64,000 bases of DNA from Syntrophobacterales bacterium (GTDB lineage Bacteria > Desulfobacterota > Syntrophorhabdia > Syntrophorhabdales > Syntrophorhabdaceae), in contig JAISPL010000030.1 of assembly GCA_031274925.1 (NCBI GenBank), positions 1 to 64,000 on the forward strand. The letters are read 5' to 3'. Positions 2,521 to 10,570 of this stretch are shown in pieces. Below the pieces are notes generated by a model. It was not told the DNA's origin. It did not search any database and worked only from the letters and a program-made list of their open reading frames with translations. Positions within the stretch are counted from its first letter, which is position 1; each line of letters begins with the position of its first letter. Position numbers and translations under genes: made by a program.

Positions 2521-3696
2521 CTAATTCGTACAGACGCAGCCCTCGGTCCAATAGGGGGACATGCTCCTCAGCCTTTCAATAATTGAGGGAAGCTTTTCTA
2601 TTACTAGGTCGATATCCTCGTCGGTGTTGTAACTGCTGAGACTGAACCTAACCGACCCATGCGCCATCGTGTATGGTACACCCATGGCGCGCAGCACATG
2701 GGAGGGCTGCAGCGATCCAGAAGTACACGCGGACCCAGATGATGCGCAGATGCCGAACTGATCCATCAAGAGAAGGATGCTTTCTCCCTCGACAAACTCG
2801 AAACTGATATTCGTCGTGTTGGGGAGCCGCTCCGCCTTCCCTCCGTTAACCTTAACATTGGGGATGCTGGTGATGAGTTTGCTTTCAAGTTTGTCGCGGA
2901 GCTGTCTTACCCTCGTGCTCTCTTCTTCAATCTTCAGGGCCGCAAGCTCGCATGCTTTTCCGAGGCCGATTATATTCGGCGTATTTTCGGTGCCGCCTCT
3001 CCGTCCCTTTTCCTGGTGGCCGCCTATCATGAATGGTGAGTATCTTGTCCCCCGGCGGACATAAAGGACGCCGATTCCTTTCGGGGCATGAAGTTTATGG
3101 CCGGAAAAGGAGAGCATGGAGATGGCGTTCTCTTTCATGTTGATGGGTATTTTGCCCACGGCCTGGACGGCGTCGGTATGGAAAACGATGCCTTTTTCCC
3201 GTGCGAGGCGGGCTGCCAGTTCGAGGGGGAAGATGACCCCGGTCTCATTATTGGCCCACATGAGACTTACTGCCGCCGTGTCCGGAGTGAGGCTTTTTTC
3301 GTACTCATCCATATCAAGGTTTCCTTCTGTGTCAACGGCAAGTTCAGTTACCCGATACCCCTTATCCCTCAAATGCTCGCAGAGGACTTTTACGGCCGGG
3401 TGTTCCACTCTGCTTGTCACCACATGGCGCTTCTCGGGATTGACTGCCAGCGCAGATAGAATAGCGGTGTTGTCGCTTTCTGTTCCACAGCTGGTAAAGA
3501 CAATCTCATCAATCTCCGCCCCAATCAGGGCTGCCACTTTCATCCGCGCCTCACTCAGTTTTCTTGCCGCCTGCCCCCCAAAGCTGTGCATACTTGACGG
3601 ATTTCCATAGATTTTGCTGAAATAGGGCATCATCTCATCAAGGACCTCTGGGGCGACCATGGTAGTGGCGTTGTTGTCAAGATATACTGCTTTCAT
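2521..3696 (-). CDS. nifS: Cysteine desulfurase, NifS/IscS type
   Basis: PLP enzyme that takes sulfur from cysteine for Fe-S clusters and, by family knowledge, also for thiazole and tRNA thiolation. N-terminal YLDNNATT, the PLP histidine region, HTDAVQAVGK, the PLP lysine in SFSGHKLHAPKG, and the catalytic cysteine loop CASSGSACTSGSLQPSHVL are all present. 391 aa, typical. ATG 3696 overlaps the nifU stop by 4 bp, so the two are translationally coupled. The protein ends in an extra C-V-C-T-N tail after the usual C-terminus, which could bind metal; this is only an observation. Symbol nifS rather than iscS is chosen from the three-domain NifU partner; no nitrogenase genes are in view. Confidence 0.93.
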   Translation of the reverse strand: MKAVYLDNNATTMVAPEVLDEMMPYFSKIYGNPSSMHSFGGQAARKLSEARMKVAALIGAEIDEIVFTSCGTESDNTAILSALAVNPEKRHVVTSRVEHPAVKVLCEHLRDKGYRVTELAVDTEGNLDMDEYEKSLTPDTAAVSLMWANNETGVIFPLELAARLAREKGIVFHTDAVQAVGKIPINMKENAISMLSFSGHKLHAPKGIGVLYVRRGTRYSPFMIGGHQEKGRRGGTENTPNIIGLGKACELAALKIEEESTRVRQLRDKLESKLITSIPNVKVNGGKAERLPNTTNISFEFVEGESILLLMDQFGICASSGSACTSGSLQPSHVLRAMGVPYTMAHGSVRFSLSSYNTDEDIDLVIEKLPSIIERLRSMSPYWTEGCVCTN

Positions 3697-4529
3697 GGGG
3701 ACACCTCCTCGACAACGAGTTCAGGTGAGACGAGTTCGCGCAATTTGATTTCCACAAATCCTTTTAACGTGAGTTGGGATGCCTGACATACCGCGCATGC
3801 TCCTCTGGTAGCCACGAGTACCCTGTTTCCCACGATATCGACAAGTTCAATGTCGCCTCCGTCATGCTTCAGAGACGGACGTATCTCTTTATCAATAGTC
3901 TCCTCAATGAGCCTGATTTTTTGGATATTCGTTAGCCTGGACTTTTCTGTTGCCGGTATCTCCGGTTTGGTCTGGGTATAGATGCTGTCGATTATAGCCT
4001 GTATCTTTCCGTGGCAGTTTTGGCACCCGCCTCCCGCTTTTGTGTAATTTGTTATCTCCTCCACCGTGGTGAGGTGGTTTTCACTGATCGCCTGTTTGAT
4101 CTCTTTATCGGTCACCCCGAAGCACTCGCATATGATCTCCCCTTCTTTCTTGGGAGAGGCGCTTCCCCGATAATTGTCGATTGCTTTTTCGAGAGCTTCC
4201 TGTCCGAGTACCGAGCAGTGCATCTTTTCGGGCGGCAGCCCCCCAAGATATTCGGCGATATCCTGGTTCGTGATCTTTCCGGCCTCTTCGATCGTCATGC
4301 CTTTGACCATCTCAGTAAGAGCCGAGGCGGATGCAATGGCGCTGGCGCAGCCGAAAGTCTTGAATTTGGCGTCTATTATCCGCTTATTTTCATCTAACTT
4401 GAAAGTAAGTTTCAAGGCATCACCGCAGGCGATGGATCCCACATCAGCAATGCCGTCCGGATTTTCTATTTCACCCACATTGCGTGGATTTAAGAAATAT
4501 TCCCTTACTTTGTCGGTATATTCCCACAT
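3693..4529 (-). CDS. nifU: Fe-S scaffold protein NifU (three domains)
   Basis: Scaffold for Fe-S cluster assembly, receiving sulfur from the adjacent NifS. Three domains in order: an IscU-like domain (about residues 1-125) with the three ligand cysteines in GSIACGDAL, FKTFGCASA and KMHCSVLG; a BFD-like [2Fe-2S] domain (about 130-180) with CECFG and CQNCHGK; and a C-terminal Nfu domain with GACAVCQAS (CxxC). Start taken at ATG 4529 (MWEYTDKV), because GGAG sits 8 bases upstream; GTG 4538 is less likely. First gene of the nifU-nifS pair and preceded by a strong promoter and a leader of over 200 bases. Confidence 0.93.
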   Translation of the reverse strand: MWEYTDKVREYFLNPRNVGEIENPDGIADVGSIACGDALKLTFKLDENKRIIDAKFKTFGCASAIASASALTEMVKGMTIEEAGKITNQDIAEYLGGLPPEKMHCSVLGQEALEKAIDNYRGSASPKKEGEIICECFGVTDKEIKQAISENHLTTVEEITNYTKAGGGCQNCHGKIQAIIDSIYTQTKPEIPATEKSRLTNIQKIRLIEETIDKEIRPSLKHDGGDIELVDIVGNRVLVATRGACAVCQASQLTLKGFVEIKLRELVSPELVVEEVSP

Positions 4530-4749
4530 GACGCACACTCCTTTAGAAAATAACGTTTCGTAATATACGAGAGCCGCTCCTCGGCATAGCGGCTGAGTAC
4601 GGACTTCAAGCCTGAAATCCTTGCGGAGCCGTATATCGATATCTTTACCACAGGTTTATCTCTCCCGCAATCTCTTTACGGCAGTCACTATAGCCCCTGT
4701 TTTCTCGGAGTCAATGCGGGAATCGCACCCACGCCTCCCGTAAGTATAG

Positions 4750-4779
4750 TATATATATGGTATAGGCTTAATGTGTCAA
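4750..4779 (-). promoter_or_regulatory. Sigma-70-like promoter for nifU-nifS
   Basis: On the minus strand a perfect TTGACA (4774-4779) is followed by a TATATATA tract giving TATATA -10 hexamers at 16 or 18 bp spacing. Transcription from here would leave a leader of about 210 bases before nifU. That leader contains a hairpin with stem AGCCGCT/AGCGGCT near 4570-4595, directly before the ribosome site. Confidence 0.55.
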
Positions 4780-5636
4780 GAATTAGAGAAGGTGCGGACT
4801 AACCGATCATCCTGTGCACCGTCGGCCTGATCAAAAGAAGAATCCAAATGCATGATTTCTTTGATCATGTGCCGTTGGAAATGAGACAGGCAATGATATT
4901 ATGGAAAAGTATGGAGACGAAATAGAACGCTGTCCTTTCTCCGGCAACGACCGTTGGAATGAAAGATTTGATAGTTATCCACATTGTATTGAAATTTCTT
5001 CCTTGTTCACCCTTCCACATTAAATATGGTTTGGGTCACGTGTAAATCTTCCAGGCTCAAGCATCCATAATATTTCTGATGAAACCATAAGGAGATTTTC
5101 CTTTGTATTGTTTTTCAGTTATAATCATTATTTTGATTCTATCACTATAATTATTTAGTGTTAACAGCACATAGAAAGCCACAGTCTTTGACTTGTATCG
5201 CTGTCGGCCTTAAGCGCTGGCCGTTCTTTACTGATTCTTCGCTTCCCCATTTCCTGCATTTCATAATGGCACCACCATTGGCGGCATTATATAATATTGT
5301 CATTTTGTCGGTAACAGTCTCTATTTATTTTTAAATTCTCTACTTCCTGAAATAATTCCAGATATTTTTGCATCCAATATTCTGATGATTTGTGACGTTT
5401 TTTCTTGACAATATCCATATATTACCGTATATTATATTTTATTTAAATTTTTAAATAAAGGATTTAGATGAGAGCACAGCACAGCACAGCACAGCACAGC
5501 ACAGCACAGCACAGCACAGCACAGCACAGCACAGCACAGCCATAATTTTCCTCTCTGTATAAAAGAACAACATAATATTCTGCTCACGCAGCAACAGGGG
5601 CAGTATATCCCTCTGAACCTGTCTCCAAGCATGCCT
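4780..5636. other. AT-rich gap with no recognisable gene
   Basis: About 850 bp between the nifU promoter and the IS3 relic. I see no open frame resembling a protein. A 15-bp stretch at 5038-5052 is the reverse complement of part of the IS1 relic at the window start (GGAAGATTTACAC), so this may hold another very decayed IS1 end. The only strong structure is the pentanucleotide array at 5474-5540. Confidence 0.5.
5474..5540. repeat. Perfect pentanucleotide tandem array (GCACA)n
   Basis: About 13.4 uninterrupted copies of a 5-bp unit (GCACA, equivalently CACAG/ACAGC), 67 bp with no mismatch. It lies in decayed non-coding DNA between nifU and the IS3 relic. A minus-strand open frame crosses it and yields a cysteine-alanine-valine-leucine repeat, but nothing on either side of that frame looks like a protein. 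Confidence 0.95.
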
Positions 5637-5880
5637 CTCGGCGTTAGCGAGGCGACCTATTATCGCTGGCGTAAGGAATAGAATGTGGGAAAAGCCTGGG
5701 GCTGGATATACTCAAGGTCAAAACCATGTTCATCAAGCTGGGCAACCCATGAGAGAATGGCTGCAACGAGTCATTCAATGGCAAGATGCGGAGTGAACTG
5801 CTGAATGGCGAAATATTTTACACGCTCAAAGAAGCTTAAGATATTGATTGAACAGTGGCGCTGCCATTACAATACCATCT
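5637..5880 (+). mobile_element. Decayed IS3-family element (OrfA/OrfB pieces)
   Basis: Broken frames of an IS3-family transposase. LGVSEATYYRWRKE followed by a stop is the OrfA/OrfB region seen in IS3-like elements; after a gap, ENGCNESFNGKMRSELLN and GEIFYTLKEA are the OrfB segment around the last catalytic residues (normally ENGYxESFNGKxRDELL). One frameshift later the text continues KILIEQWRCHYNTI, the usual C-terminal piece, and then stops matching at about 5880, exactly where the ribosome site of the lectin gene begins. No intact transposase is left. Confidence 0.85.
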
Positions 5881-5896
5881 TAAGGAGGATACACAA

Positions 5897-6373
5897 ATGA
5901 AAAACATGAAAAGAATTATGCTGTTAGGTTTGTTGTGTGCGGGCTTTGGCATGCTTGCGTTGGGTGGCTTCAATGTCTGCTATGGGGCAAGCGTGATACA
6001 CAGCGGAACTTGCTTAGATGTCGACGGCGGTCGTACTGCCAACGGCACTGTTGTCCACATATGGCAATGCCAGGCGGGAAACCGTAACCAGGATTGGACT
6101 TTTGATAATGGCAGGATAGTCTGGACGGGCACCAATAAATGTTTAGATGTCGACGGCGGTCGCACTGCCAACGGCACCAAGGTCCAGATTTGGGATTGCC
6201 AAAACGGAAACACCAATCAGCGATGGTCTCTCGATACTAATTTTCCTGGCAAAATAGTCTGGATGGGTGGCAAATGCTTAGATGTCAACGCCGGTGGTAC
6301 GGCCACTGGCACCAAAGTCCAGACTTGGGACTGCATGGCGGGGAACGATAACCAGCAATGGATCGTTAAGTAA
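5897..6373 (+). CDS. Secreted ricin-B-type (beta-trefoil) lectin protein
   Basis: 158 aa. A signal peptide is clear: MKNMKRIMLLGLLCAGFGML, a hydrophobic run to about residue 28 and a likely cut after CYGA. The rest is one carbohydrate-binding beta-trefoil made of three repeats of about 42 residues, each with CLDV...TANGTxVxxW.C...NxNQxW (NRNQDW, NTNQRW, NDNQQW); these are the QxW motifs of the ricin B / CBM13 family. Start at ATG 5897 with AAGGAGG at 5882-5888. The upstream DNA is an IS3 relic, so any promoter must lie within it or before it. Its coding DNA is nearly identical to the 5' part of the next gene at 6704, showing a recent tandem duplication. The sugar target cannot be told. Confidence 0.88.
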   Translation: MKNMKRIMLLGLLCAGFGMLALGGFNVCYGASVIHSGTCLDVDGGRTANGTVVHIWQCQAGNRNQDWTFDNGRIVWTGTNKCLDVDGGRTANGTKVQIWDCQNGNTNQRWSLDTNFPGKIVWMGGKCLDVNAGGTATGTKVQTWDCMAGNDNQQWIVK

Positions 6374-6420
6374 CTGCGCGAAAGGGTTGACCTGCCGGGC
6401 CGGACCCAGCGGCAGGCGTG

Positions 6421-6460
6421 AACAGGGGGGGGGGTGGTGGTGACCTCTCCCCTGTTTTCT
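6421..6460 (+). terminator. Candidate terminator after first lectin gene
   Basis: AACAGGGG (6421-6428) pairs with CCCCTGTT (6449-6456), followed by TTCT. The loop contains a run of Gs. It sits 48 bp after the lectin stop. Confidence 0.45.
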
Positions 6461-6610
6461 ATGGGCAGCGCCTTATGAATTGGCGGCAATTGGTTTCCCG
6501 CCAATTTAAGCGCAGGGGCGAAGTCCAAAGTTCCGAGCCAATCCCGAGATGTCCGGTTAAGCTCGGATTATTTCTGAAATAACGGTGAACAGTAGCAACC
6601 AGCTTCTAGC

Positions 6611-6703
6611 AGGAGGATAGACATGAACAGATTGGCATGATTTTGTTTATGCGCATTAGGTATTTCCATCTTTGCCGTCCACAGCGTCTGCTATGGGGCA
6701 AGC
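6611..6703 (+). other. Signal-peptide region of second lectin gene, interrupted by TGA
   Basis: AGGAGG (6611-6616) stands 6 bases before ATG 6623. The frame reads M-N-R-L-A, then TGA at 6638-6640, then continues without break through FCLCALGISIFAVHSVCYGA into the lectin gene at 6704. The part after the stop is a good hydrophobic signal-peptide core ending in the same CYGA cut site as the first lectin. So the natural start is 6623, and one TGA cuts the signal peptide. It may be a true nonsense mutation, a read-through codon or a base-call error. Confidence 0.8.
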
Positions 6704-8653
6704 GTGATACACAGCGGAACTTGCTTAGATGTCGCGGGTGGTGGCACCGCCAACGGCACTGTTGTCCACATATGGCAATGCCAGGCGGGAAACCGTAACC
6801 AGGATTGGACTTTTGATAATGGCAGGATAGTCTGGACGGGCACCAATAAATGTTTAGATGTCAACGCCGGTGGTACGGCCAACGGCACCAAGGTCCAGAG
6901 TTGGGATTGCCAAAACGGAAACACCAATCAGCGATGGTCTCTCGATACTAATTTTCCTGGCAAAATAGTCTGGACGGGCACCAATAAATGTTTAGATGTC
7001 AACGCCGGTGGTACGGCCAATGGCACCAAAGTCCAGACTTGGGACTGCATGGCGGGGAACGGTAACCAGCAATGGACAATCGGCGAGTTGAACCTCAATC
7101 CACCCGCCAACAGCGTTAAAGCCGTGCATGGGAACACGGATTGGAACATCGACACAGCCAATGCGTTTCTCTTCGGCAAGAACATGGCGGGGAGCCAGAC
7201 CACGCAACACTATGCGCCTAACACTTGGAGCAAGACACACAGCCACATCGGGCTGACAAACACTTCAAAGTATTATTACGACAAGAGCCGCGTGAGTACA
7301 GGCGCCGACACCGATGTCTTGAACGGGATCGACCAGACGATGCTGTTTTTTTATACCGGCCACGGTAACCCCACGATCTGGAACACGCTGGGCGATAATG
7401 CTACCCAAAGTTCGGTGTTGTTGGCGAATTCCAATGGCGGAGGCAAACTCCGCTACTACTGGCAATGTTCGTGTGCGGTTTTTGCCCACGGCCCTGAGAC
7501 TTGCACACCGAGGGGTACTTTCAGCTACTCTTGCCCGAATAAGTTCAACGGCGCTGCTGACTCCGTTTCTATGCGCAACGTCTTCCAGCGCTGGGGTTCT
7601 GCGCTGAACAGTTCCTTGCGCATGGCCTGCGGGGGATCCACCTCAATGTATTGCAATACCGACCAGGTGGATCGGGTGTGGAGCAACTACGCACGCGGTT
7701 ATACCGTGGCACAAATGTTCCTTGACGGATTCGGCCAGGGAGGGGCGTATGGCGTTGTCCCGCTGTGCATCACAATGGGTGGCGATGACATTACCAAGAC
7801 GCCTTTGTATGACACCAGCTTTACCAATGCGCCAAACACCTCTGGCAACACTCACTACCATCTGATGTATCCTGCGGGAACTCAACAATCGAGTTCAAAC
7901 CAGCTGTCCGCAAGGCAAATCACGCAGCAGTTACCCAAGTTCAAGGTGGCCCAGGCCACGCCGCCACCCAAGCTGGTCAAGGCGCTGAGCACGTCCGGAA
8001 CGTCCTTGGAGGTAGCCTCCCCGCTGCTGGCCGGCGGTAAAGCCAGGTTGGAGCGTGTTTCCGGCACCGGCGCGTTACACCTTGATTCCGGGCAAATCGC
8101 CAAGCCAGGCAGAAAAACGCTCACCGAAAAGGAATATATCAAACATGCCGCGAGCTTCCTCAGCGAGCAGGAATGGAGCGAGCAGCAAACAGCCGAGCCG
8201 ATGGTCACCCGCTACACGACGGTCAGTATGCCGGTGGCGGGCCAGCCGTCCGAGATGCAAGAGACTCAGGCCGGCGTGACCGTCCAGTACAAACGCGTTG
8301 TCCAGGCTGGTGGCGCGTCACTCGAAGTGCTTGGCACGGCCGGGACCATCCGCGTGCAGATGGACAATGAAGGAACCGTGCTGAGAGCCACGAAGCTTTG
8401 GCAAAAGCTTGAGCCAATCAGCTCGTCCTTCGCCGTAAAGGACTTTGAAGCTGCGCGGGCCGAAGCCATGAAACAACTCCACGCAGCGGACAGCTATCAA
8501 CTCAACCAATGGAAGCTGGGCTATAGGCAGGTGTCCGTTGGGGCCGATCAGGACGAGCTGAGGCCTGTGTACCAGTTCGCCTTTGTCCCGGCAAAGCAGC
8601 ACGACATTGAGCATCCGCCGCAACTCATTGAGGTGTCCGCACTGAAACAGTAA
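6704..8653 (+). CDS. Ricin-B-type lectin fused to a caspase-fold-like (DUF6345-like) domain
   Basis: 649 aa if read from GTG 6704; the natural start is probably ATG 6623, interrupted by TGA. Residues 1-125 are a beta-trefoil lectin with three QxW repeats (NRNQDW, NTNQRW, NGNQQW), almost identical to the gene just upstream. Residues about 140-390 begin GNTDWNIDTANAFLFGKNM and carry LFFYTGHGNPT (His 220) and WQCSCAVFAHG (Cys 255/257). The order GHG ... SC resembles the dyad of clan CD (caspase/gingipain-like) folds and matches my memory of DUF6345; peptidase activity is inference. Residues about 420-649 look like a PepSY-like or adhesion tail without recognised motif. Base use is more GC-rich than neighbours, and IS3 and Tn3 relics flank it, suggesting transfer. 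Confidence 0.75.
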   Translation: MIHSGTCLDVAGGGTANGTVVHIWQCQAGNRNQDWTFDNGRIVWTGTNKCLDVNAGGTANGTKVQSWDCQNGNTNQRWSLDTNFPGKIVWTGTNKCLDVNAGGTANGTKVQTWDCMAGNGNQQWTIGELNLNPPANSVKAVHGNTDWNIDTANAFLFGKNMAGSQTTQHYAPNTWSKTHSHIGLTNTSKYYYDKSRVSTGADTDVLNGIDQTMLFFYTGHGNPTIWNTLGDNATQSSVLLANSNGGGKLRYYWQCSCAVFAHGPETCTPRGTFSYSCPNKFNGAADSVSMRNVFQRWGSALNSSLRMACGGSTSMYCNTDQVDRVWSNYARGYTVAQMFLDGFGQGGAYGVVPLCITMGGDDITKTPLYDTSFTNAPNTSGNTHYHLMYPAGTQQSSSNQLSARQITQQLPKFKVAQATPPPKLVKALSTSGTSLEVASPLLAGGKARLERVSGTGALHLDSGQIAKPGRKTLTEKEYIKHAASFLSEQEWSEQQTAEPMVTRYTTVSMPVAGQPSEMQETQAGVTVQYKRVVQAGGASLEVLGTAGTIRVQMDNEGTVLRATKLWQKLEPISSSFAVKDFEAARAEAMKQLHAADSYQLNQWKLGYRQVSVGADQDELRPVYQFAFVPAKQHDIEHPPQLIEVSALKQ

Positions 8654-8670
8654 CAATTGTTCCAGTGAAG

Positions 8671-8731
8671 CACGAAACGGGCACTTACTCATCTTTGGCA
8701 GCGATAGAGATGAGTAAGTGCCCGTTTCGTG
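8671..8731. repeat. Perfect 24-bp inverted repeat with 13-nt loop
   Basis: The arm beginning CACGAAACGGGCACTTACTC (8671-8694) is exactly reverse-complemented at 8708-8731. No U-run follows on either strand, so it is not a standard terminator. It lies 18 bp after the stop of the lectin-fusion gene and about 95 bp before a Tn3 transposase relic. Confidence 0.95.
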
Positions 8732-8826
8732 GTGGTGGCATCCGCAATTTGTCGAGAAAGTTAAAGAGCAAGTTGACTGGATGCAGAACGTTTAGTTGCG
8801 CACGCCTTGTGCAGATTGGTTGAATA

Positions 8827-9054
8827 ATGGCGAAGCACAAAAACGCGCTGGTCCAAGCCGCAGCCGTATTCTTGAACCGGCTCGGTGAAATCTGTGACCG
8901 CAATTTCGAGAATCAGCGTTGCCGCGCGAGCGACCGCAACTTAGTGGTGGCCGCAATCATCATGTGGAACACTGTCTGCCTGGAACGGGCAGTCCAGGCG
9001 CTACGTGACCCAGGCAAGAGTATTGATGAGCGGCTGTTCCTGCATCAATCGTAA
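8827..9054 (+). mobile_element. Tn3-family transposase relic (C-terminal piece)
   Basis: 75-codon frame. [20 protein letters not shown], followed by DERLF, matches the C-terminal stretch of Tn3-family TnpA, where the family has N...AxxxWNTVYLERAVxxLR. The preceding [17 protein letters not shown] corresponds to the F...GEI.DR..E.Q segment. Only this end survives; the usual transposase is about 1000 aa. It suggests that the lectin block arrived on, or was later hit by, a Tn3-type transposon. Confidence 0.75.
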
Positions 9055-9077
9055 TATCATTTGTTGATTCTCATTTT

Positions 9078-9464
9078 CTACGAACCTATCAGCGAACTTT
9101 TCTGCGACCCTAATGTTCTCCGCCGGTGTAACAATGTGGCACTTATCTTACTCGGCGATGCCTGAAACAAAGGCTCTGGCTTACCTGTATCCTTACAGAT
9201 TGTTGTTATTCGCTCAATTCCTCGCCCCCAAGTTTCAATGCAGCCCGCCCGGTAAAACGCATAGGCGATTTTTGGATTATAAGGGCAATACCTGCGTTTT
9301 TTCAGTAAATTGGCGGTTGTCCAGTTCTCCGGCAGCCTGCCGTCGTTGTAAACAATAACGCAGTCGGGAAACACTTTAATCTGTATCGGTATGCCTGTCG
9401 TATAATCGCGATGAACAATAGCAGCGGAGCTTATTTTGTCTGACAAAAAATATTTTCTATACAA
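9078..9464 (-). pseudogene. Truncated AlbA_2/RecG-like regulator (C-terminal part)
   Basis: 128 codons. The frame opens in the middle of a known layout: AAIVHRDYTTGIPIQIKVF, PDCVIVYNDGRLPENW, YNPKIAYAFYRAGCIETWGRGIERI. This is the C-terminal ATPase-like half of the widespread transcriptional-regulator proteins often labelled ATP-dependent DNA helicase RecG-like, normally about 400-500 aa with an N-terminal AlbA_2 domain. The N-terminal half is missing, and the extra tail after EPLF does not match, so this is a relic. Further along the same strand (end at 9505) a short unrelated tail is left (RLARRKMLTGGEIQREIEYF) which I do not recognise. Confidence 0.7.
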
Positions 9465-9973
9465 AGCATATCTTTTCTCTCCATTGACCGCGGTTAATCA
9501 CGATTCAGTTTTTATCGTATTTCGCGTCATAAAAATACTCAATTTCACGCTGAATCTCGCCGCCTGTCAGCATTTTGCGACGGGCCAGTCTCTCTCGCGC
9601 TTTTTCGTGAGCACGCGACGCCAGTGGGGTTTAGTGAGCCGGACATGCTAAAGTTCTTGCCCGATGAATATCCAGCCCGACCTATAGCGAGCGTTTGCCG
9701 TCCTCATTTTGGCTGGCGCCTGGTGCATGTGTATGCCGTATGCCACCAATAAAATCATCTCCGTTTGAAAAAGGAAGGCAGCGTTCACGAAAGGGACGAC
9801 GTTGATGATAGCAATAAAATCGTGACGGTTCTGACCAAATTATCTTGCCTTGAAAGAAGGCATCACGGTGTGGATCCAGTTTATAGTGGTCTTGCAATGA
9901 TAGTATAGCACTGGGTTTATTTTTGAGCAGATTTGCGATATAAATATGATCCGCCATGCGCCGGTCTGGAAAA
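9465..9973. other. Decayed stretch before thiE2
   Basis: Contains a minus-strand C-terminal scrap ending at 9505 and otherwise no convincing protein. I looked for a TPP riboswitch (CTGAGA ... ACCTGA core) ahead of thiE2 and did not find one. The thiE2 promoter is not evident. Confidence 0.4.
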
Positions 9974-10570
9974 ATGAAGAAAACACCTTTTGAAAAAGAT
10001 ATTTATATTATCTCCGACAGGGTCGATGTGCTGAAAGAGGCCGTGGAAGATGGGGCTGCCATCGTTCAACTCCGTGACAAATCAGGAGACAAACAGGAAA
10101 TTTTGAGGAAAGCTTTGGAAATTGTGGCGTTCAGGCAGGTCAGGCCCTTTATTTTTATTCTGAACGATGACCCTGAGCTTGCGGTGAAAGCAGGTGCGGA
10201 CGGTGTTCACGTGGGCCAGGACACGTCTACCGAGGAAACCAGAAGAAAGATGAGTCCTGACATGATATTGGGCAAGACGACGCACAACCTTAAACAGGCG
10301 AGGCAGGCCATTTATGACGGCGCGGATTATATATCGGTGGGACCCGTACACGCGACACCCACAAAACCTGGAAGACAAGCCGTGGGACTCTCGTACGTGA
10401 GAGAGGCAGCCGAAAATCTCAATATACCGTTTGTGGTGATTGGTGGGATTGATCTTACAAATATTGATGACGTTCTTGACGCAGGGGCTAGGACCGTGGG
10501 AGTGGTGAGGGCCTGCGGCGATACCAGGGAATTACTTGCCAGGGTCAAGGGTAAAAAAATTGAAGATTAA
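9974..10570 (+). CDS. thiE: Thiamine-phosphate synthase ThiE (copy 2)
   Basis: 198 aa from ATG 9974 (MKKTPFEKDIYIISDRVDVL). Barrel signatures: IVQLRDKSGDK, FILNDDPELAVKAGADGVHVGQD, ILGKTTHN, YISVGPVHATPTKPG (the phosphate loop closer to consensus than in copy 1) and VVIGGIDLTN. Start of a plus-strand operon thiE-thiS-thiG-thiH, so this is the copy tied to de novo thiazole synthesis. The thiS start lies inside its 3' end (11-bp overlap). The first 18 bp of the longer frame (from 9956) encode nothing conserved. TenI-type proteins are the main alternative, but the TPTK loop favours ThiE. Confidence 0.9.
   Translation: MKKTPFEKDIYIISDRVDVLKEAVEDGAAIVQLRDKSGDKQEILRKALEIVAFRQVRPFIFILNDDPELAVKAGADGVHVGQDTSTEETRRKMSPDMILGKTTHNLKQARQAIYDGADYISVGPVHATPTKPGRQAVGLSYVREAAENLNIPFVVIGGIDLTNIDDVLDAGARTVGVVRACGDTRELLARVKGKKIED

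What the first reader, a model, noticed from the sequence alone, without database searches (positions are those of the whole stretch)
5637..8731. Tandem secreted lectin genes seated directly on an IS3 relic
Two ricin-B-type lectin genes lie head to tail. Their lectin parts are nearly identical in DNA, with patches differing (for example the stretch after CLDV), which suggests duplication followed by recombination. The IS3 OrfB text breaks off at about 5880, just where the first gene's ribosome site begins, and a Tn3 transposase relic follows the second gene. Base use differs from the rest of the window. The block looks like a transferred cassette for binding sugars outside the cell.
Basis: partly seen in the sequence, partly recalled or inferred. 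Interest (0 to 1): 0.62.

Follow-up and report, generated by a model that had tools for sequence, protein, structure and literature searches.

The report
Foreign lectin genes, one fused to protease
A bacterium carries a small patch of imported DNA with two near-identical sugar-binding genes, one of them joined in frame to a predicted caspase-like enzyme whose relatives carry a different front domain, so it looks like a natural domain swap, although an early stop codon may have silenced it.

Summary
Three quarters of it is a 524-residue region of another family: an H...C caspase/gingipain-like domain (weak C25 and DUF6345 matches) plus a YycI/PepSY-like C-terminal domain. This family is scattered over many phyla, occurs in 1 of 39 genomes of the host's family, and is closest to Acidobacteriota (64-69%). 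Its nine other relatives in the same clade carry an Ig-like front domain; here a lectin stands in its place. Seven family genomes have nifU and thiE only 0.2-2.0 kb apart, against 5.4 kb here, so the site was filled secondarily. Eleven of 12 differences between the lectins (first 272 nt) sit in two 15-nt sugar-loop patches, one identical to the third lobe, which suggests gene conversion. Only the enzyme part has foreign base use (GC3 0.70 vs 0.58). Gene 2 has an in-frame TGA at codon 6, inside its signal peptide, so its secretion is doubtful. Verdict: a genuine, composite acquired island; new variant of a known kind (chimerolectin).

The parts
4539..9973 (.). Secondary filling between nifU (-) and thiE (+); both flanks are syntenic with related genomes
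   Evidence: In G006, G008, G009, G010, G013, G014 and G016 the nifU-thiE gap is 0.2-2.0 kb; G029 has the same flanks with a different 4.4-kb filling
5343..5644 (+). Copy of an interspersed element with a promoter-like site TTGACA-17-TATATT at 5405-5433; pentamer (AGCAC)13.6 at 5473-5540 expanded inside it
   Evidence: 93% and 83% identical pieces to G000:C25:46199-46669, also C4; promoter scan 11/12; TRF; no Rfam match
5637..5879 (+). IS3-family relic, internally deleted (OrfA piece 5637-5678, OrfB end 5732-5879)
   Evidence: blastn to annotated IS3 transposases; translation
5897..6373 (+). Gene 1: hydrophobic, signal-peptide-like N-terminus plus single three-lobed ricin-B/CBM13 lectin (158 aa); ribosome site 5882-5888; terminator-like hairpin 6425-6453
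6623..6703 (+). 5' end of gene 2: AGGAGG 6611-6616, ATG 6623, signal-peptide-like codons interrupted by in-frame TGA 6638-6640; no convincing downstream hairpin
6704..7078 (+). Gene 2 lectin domain, three CBM13 lobes, near copy of gene 1
7079..7852 (+). Gene 2 predicted caspase/gingipain-like domain; His95 codon 7361-7363, Cys130 codon 7466-7468
   Evidence: Pfam C25 1.5e-4 in the window protein; DUF6345 above cut-off in relative L025; AlphaFold model pLDDT 79.7, pTM 0.83; conservation
7853..8653 (+). Gene 2 C-terminal YycI/YpeB/PepSY-like domain, predicted regulator or pro-domain
   Evidence: Foldseek to YycI 2o3o 1.2e-6 and vibriolysin MCP-02 3nqy 0.018; encoded as a separate adjacent gene in L007
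8671..8731 (.). Perfect 24-bp inverted repeat with 13-nt loop, no T-run; origin unknown
   Evidence: (z -9.4)
8775..9054 (+). 3' end relic of a Tn3-family transposase
   Evidence: PF01526; DNA match 8775-9046
9078..9464 (-). Fragment of a RecG-C-terminal-like (HATPase_c_4) protein
   Evidence: PF13749 7.2e-18

Best explanation
The block is an acquired, composite insertion between two conserved operons (nifSU and thiESGH). It encodes (1) a free secreted CBM13-type lectin and (2) a chimerolectin in which a lectin copy occupies the N-terminal place that an Ig-like domain holds in all close relatives of a predicted extracellular caspase-fold (clan CD, C25/DUF6345-like) cysteine peptidase with a YycI/PepSY-like C-terminal domain. 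Proposed working: the lectin anchors the enzyme to a polysaccharide or cell-surface glycan, the His-Cys dyad cleaves proteins there, and the C-terminal domain acts as chaperone or inhibitor until processed; the free lectin binds the same class of glycan. Gene conversion between lobes and between the two genes homogenises the scaffold and swaps the sugar-contacting loops. Shown here: the parts, the insertion, the incongruent phylogeny, the domain replacement and the clustered loop patches. Inferred: peptidase activity, sugar binding, role of the C-terminal domain, and that gene 1 donated the lectin. The in-frame TGA at codon 6 means gene 2 may now be silenced or unsecreted in this genome.
For: Rare and scattered enzyme family: 1/39 family genomes, 5/395 of the phylum including its own, 24 loci in Acidobacteriota, Pseudomonadota, Bacteroidota, Myxococcota and others. 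Tree: window grouped with Acidobacteriota and Rhodocyclaceae (100/100) inside a ten-member clade whose other nine carry the Ig-like domain. At the junction the window keeps ELxxNPPANS but has lost the two cysteines present in 9/9 Ig-bearing relatives (GDCPG and ELRC). GC3 differs between the lectin and enzyme parts of one gene. nifU-thiE gap only 0.2-2.0 kb in seven family genomes. His95 in 24/25 and Cys130 in 25/25 sequences, at the ends of predicted strands 89-93 and 126-129, the clan CD arrangement described in PMC4357240. Loop patches: 11 of 12 differences in two 15-nt windows; the gene-2 beta-lobe patch equals the gamma-lobe sequence over 20 nt.
Against: The clan CD assignment rests on sub-threshold Pfam scores in the window protein (C25 21.6 of 23 bits), one relative above the DUF6345 cut-off, motif placement, and weak caspase hits in Foldseek (E 0.25-0.5); hhalign of the two family alignments gave only 1.6% probability. 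The TGA argues against a functional secreted gene 2. The genome is a MAG; tandem near-identical lectins could confuse assembly, although each copy has its own variants and flanks. The direction of copying (gene 1 to gene 2 or the reverse) is not resolved. No binding or enzymatic data.
Confidence: 0.6

Rival explanations
1. Pseudogene scrap heap: the region is a graveyard of mobile-element relics; gene 2 is already dead because of the TGA, and only gene 1 is expressed.
For: In-frame TGA at codon 6 with no convincing hairpin behind it; IS3, Tn3 and RecG-like fragments and a broken repeat copy surround the pair.
Against: The remaining 649 codons have no stop or frameshift, and the invariant His, Cys and cysteine positions are kept; an old pseudogene would have decayed. 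A single lesion could be very recent or a sequence error.
Confidence: 0.3
2. The lectin-enzyme fusion was imported ready-made, and gene 1 is a truncated local copy of its lectin half rather than the donor.
For: The lectin is as rare as the enzyme in the phylum: 3/297 genomes including its own, so no local donor other than gene 1 is known; signal regions of the two genes differ.
Against: No relative in the 24 GTDB loci has a lectin front; GC3 of the lectin part matches gene 1 and the host, not the enzyme part.
Confidence: 0.3
3. Ordinary vertically inherited secreted lectin operon that relatives happened to lose.
For: GC3 of the lectins is host-like.
Against: Absent from 38 other family genomes, nearest kin in other phyla, and seven family genomes have only 0.2-2.0 kb between nifU and thiE.
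Confidence: 0.03
4. The caspase-like domain is not a peptidase but a catalytically dead or non-proteolytic extracellular domain, and the protein is an adhesin or sensor.
For: No characterised homologue and no PDB sequence match; the L040 branch has lost the motif His, so some members may be inactive.
Against: His and Cys are kept in the window protein and nearly all relatives; C25 profile hits in 9 and DUF6345 in 13 of 25 members.
Confidence: 0.25

Closest known systems
CBM13 / ricin-B lectin modules (xylanase 1knl and 1isv, arabinofuranosidase 3wmy)
   Same: Three QxW lobes, paired cysteines, CLDV...GTxVQxWxC pattern
   Different: The PDB relatives sit on glycoside hydrolases; here one copy is free and one sits on a predicted peptidase
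Ricin-B chimerolectins with peptidases (for example Peptidase S1E of Stigmatella, M27 of Cystobacter; PMC11212257)
   Same: A ricin-B domain attached to a peptidase-type enzyme in bacteria
   Different: Different peptidase type (C25/DUF6345-like), lectin at the N-terminus in the place of an Ig-like domain, and a twin lectin gene next door
Peptidase family C25 (gingipain) and other clan CD peptidases
   Same: GHG...C motif order, strand placement of His and Cys, weak profile match
   Different: Below the Pfam cut-off; no gingipain prodomain recognised; different C-terminal domain
Pfam DUF6345 (PF19872)
   Same: 13 of 25 family members hit it, L025 above the cut-off; L007 has a genuine DUF6345 gene beside a separate copy of the C-terminal domain
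   Different: The window protein itself does not hit it; function of DUF6345 unknown; no paper found

Membership tests
Ricin-B / CBM13 lectin | Profile score above curated cut-off | tested here: met
   PF14200 106.5 and 93.3 bits (cut-off 25.6), PF00652 90.2 and 88 (cut-off 29)
Ricin-B / CBM13 lectin | Three lobes with QxW and conserved sugar-contact Asp, Trp and Asn | tested here: met
   CLDV...W(D/Q)C...NQxW in all six lobes of the two genes; the roles of the residues are from knowledge of CBM13
Ricin-B / CBM13 lectin | Binds sugar | not testable with these tools
   Needs glycan array or pull-down
Peptidase C25 / clan CD | Curated profile score | tested here: not met
   21.6 bits against 23
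Peptidase C25 / clan CD | Caspase/haemoglobinase fold with His after strand 3 and Cys after strand 4 | tested here: inconclusive
   Model pLDDT 79.7 with His95 after strand 89-93 and Cys130 after strand 126-129; Foldseek caspase hits only E 0.25-0.5
Peptidase C25 / clan CD | Cys-dependent proteolysis | not testable with these tools
   No experiment
DUF6345 | Curated profile score | tested here: not met
   Window protein no hit; relative L025 28.9 bits against 26.9
Recently transferred mobile cassette | Much shorter or empty site in relatives and incongruent phylogeny | tested here: met
Recently transferred mobile cassette | Intact mobile element or target-site duplication around the genes | tested here: not met
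   Only relics of IS3 and Tn3 seen; no flanking direct repeats found within 4500-10000

The most novel reading that the evidence does not exclude
A secreted caspase-like protease has recently exchanged its Ig-like targeting domain for the neighbouring lectin, and gene conversion between the paired lectins and their lobes keeps reshuffling the sugar-contact loops, giving a small self-diversifying glycan-targeting system.
Probability: 0.2. Interest if true: 0.68.

Novelty: new variant of a known kind. Interest (0 to 1): 0.47.

Why it matters
It is a readable case of domain replacement in bacteria: the Ig-bearing relatives, the neighbouring lectin copy and the near-empty site are all on hand, so the order of events can be tested. 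It also points to an undescribed, widely transferred family of extracellular caspase-fold proteins (C25/DUF6345-like plus YycI/PepSY-like domain) in environmental bacteria, with interchangeable front domains (lipoprotein anchor, Ig-like, lectin).

Tried and rejected
Selenocysteine or other recoding of the TGA: no stronger-than-chance hairpin (z -1.4 and -0.7), and a recoded residue inside a signal peptide is implausible. Diversity-generating retroelement for the loop patches: changes are not limited to A positions and I saw no reverse transcriptase among the window ORFs; the weak Mtd_2nd match (5.6e-4, below cut-off) was not followed. Phage or plasmid origin: no match of the enzyme part in phages, plasmids or IMG/VR, none of the lectins in phages. 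Remains of an Ig-like domain elsewhere in 4500-10000: none (best E 0.036 lies within the lectins). Rfam families for the repeat element: none. First structure model from four sequences was poor (pLDDT 48) and was replaced by the 25-sequence model. Single-sequence genome-contig scan found nothing; the alignment-based scan succeeded. hhalign against a three-row DUF6345 alignment was uninformative. Viral structure library: nothing significant.

Full report
What is in the sequence. The window is contig C30:1-64000 of a 2.06-Mb draft genome in 57 contigs, probably a metagenome-assembled genome (completeness 97%). Gene 1 (5897-6373) encodes a hydrophobic, signal-peptide-like start and one ricin-B/CBM13 lectin. 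Gene 2 has its own ribosome site (AGGAGG 6611-6616) and ATG at 6623, but codon 6 is TGA; behind it runs an open frame to 8653. Its first 125 residues (from 6704) are a near copy of the gene-1 lectin; the remaining 524 residues are something else.

The flanks. DNA 5732-5879 matches annotated IS3 transposases at about 70% and stops at 5879, three bases before the gene-1 ribosome site; an OrfA-like piece precedes it, so the relic is internally deleted. After gene 2 come a perfect 24-bp inverted repeat, the end of a Tn3 transposase and a fragment of a RecG-C-like gene. Upstream, 5343-5644 is a copy of an interspersed element that occurs elsewhere in this genome but in none of the 38 other genomes of the family searched; in this copy a pentamer has expanded to 13.6 units. 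The element carries an 11-of-12 promoter match at 5405-5433, which might serve gene 1; this is inference.

Insertion and transfer. In seven genomes of the family (G006, G008, G009, G010, G013, G014, G016) nifU and thiE lie 0.2-2.0 kb apart; in the window they are 5.4 kb apart, and in G029 of the same genus the space holds 4.4 kb of different genes. What fills the 0.7-2.0 kb gaps was not examined; G008, with 196 bp, is practically empty. The enzyme region is found in 1 of 39 family genomes and 5 of 395 phylum genomes counting its own. An alignment-based scan gave 24 loci in many phyla. In the tree the window protein groups with two Acidobacteriota MAG proteins and one from Rhodocyclaceae (100/100). 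So the enzyme part is foreign, although at 69% identity the sampled relatives are not the direct donor. Its GC3 (0.703) stands about four standard deviations above host genes, while both lectins are host-like; the two halves of gene 2 thus seem to have different histories.

Domain replacement. Nine relatives in the same clade carry about 100 residues of an Ig-like domain (my reading of the sequence; no Pfam match) before the enzyme part, others only a lipoprotein-type leader or another short start, and none a lectin. The window protein nests inside the Ig-bearing clade, so the lectin most simply replaced the Ig-like domain. At the junction the window reads IGELNLNPPANS where relatives read FELRCNPPANS; the cysteine there and its probable partner in the Ig-like domain (GDCPG), present in all nine, are both gone. 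No Ig-like remains were found nearby.

Loop patches. Over the first 272 aligned bases the lectins differ at 12 places; 11 lie in two 15-nt windows just after the CLDV codons, and 0 of 20,000 random draws cluster as strongly. The gene-2 beta-lobe patch is identical over 20 nt to the gamma-lobe sequence of the same gene. This is what gene conversion between lobes leaves. The loop follows the conserved Asp that contacts sugar in CBM13 modules (established knowledge, not tested here), so the patches may alter specificity; that is inference.

What the enzyme part is. A 25-sequence AlphaFold model is fair (mean pLDDT 79.7, pTM 0.83). Strand 89-93 is followed by Gly-His-Gly (His95, kept in 24 of 25) and strand 126-129 by Cys130 (25 of 25). 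That is the clan CD arrangement (PMC4357240). Nine of 25 members hit Peptidase_C25 and 13 hit DUF6345 weakly; one (L025) exceeds the DUF6345 cut-off. Foldseek gives YycI, YpeB and vibriolysin matches, which I assign to the C-terminal half from its strand pattern (the output does not state the aligned range), and caspases only weakly. In L007 a DUF6345 gene and a gene for the C-terminal domain lie side by side as separate genes, which supports a functional link between the two halves. Legumain, a clan CD enzyme, is controlled by a C-terminal domain (PMC4357240), an analogy only.

State of gene 2. With TGA at codon 6 and no other in-frame ATG, GTG or TTG before GTG 6704, the protein as written would lack a signal peptide. 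The rest of the frame is intact. A recent lesion, a sequence error or a cytoplasmic product cannot be told apart here; recoding is unlikely.

Verdict. A real, composite, acquired island with two lectin genes, one fused to a predicted caspase-fold enzyme. Ricin-B domains joined to peptidases are already known in bacteria (PMC11212257), so this is a new variant of a known kind. No paper was found on DUF6345 or on a ricin-B/C25 combination, within the open-licence library searched.

Noticed in passing
5343-5644; G000:C25:46199-46669; G000:C4:31434-31841; G000:C19:33303-33397: Interspersed element of about 410-470 bp with a strong promoter-like start and, in the C25 copy, a hairpin plus T-run at its end; not in Rfam and not in the 38 other genomes of the family searched. 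Could be a small RNA gene or a mobile leader.
   Followed up: partly
5473-5540: (AGCAC)13.6 pentamer array, the only run of four or more units in the genome; the C25 copy of the element has a single unit at this place.
   Followed up: partly
8671-8731: Perfect 24-bp inverted repeat (folding energy -51 kcal/mol) right after gene 2, without a T-run; no other copy in the three genomes of the genus.
   Followed up: partly
6425-6434: Run of ten G inside the terminator-like hairpin behind gene 1.
   Followed up: no
L041:8544-9356 and 7801-8547 (G029): The same nifU-thiE gap in a genus mate holds an ABC exporter and a cystathionine-lyase-like gene, so this gap is a repeated landing site.
   Followed up: partly
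L041:14057-16159 (G029): Secreted papain-like protease with what look like chagasin-like and repeated Ig-like parts near the thyX end of the syntenic region.
   Followed up: no
L004:34-1044 and 3176-3982 (Geobacter L1geo): The enzyme-family gene in Geobacter sits between a phospholipase-C-like and a secreted RNase-T2-like gene, possibly a small set of extracellular hydrolases.
   Followed up: no
L021 (contig JAJRAB010000069.1): A family member on a 3.5-kb contig binned as the archaeon Methanomethylicus; likely a binning error or a transfer.
   Followed up: no
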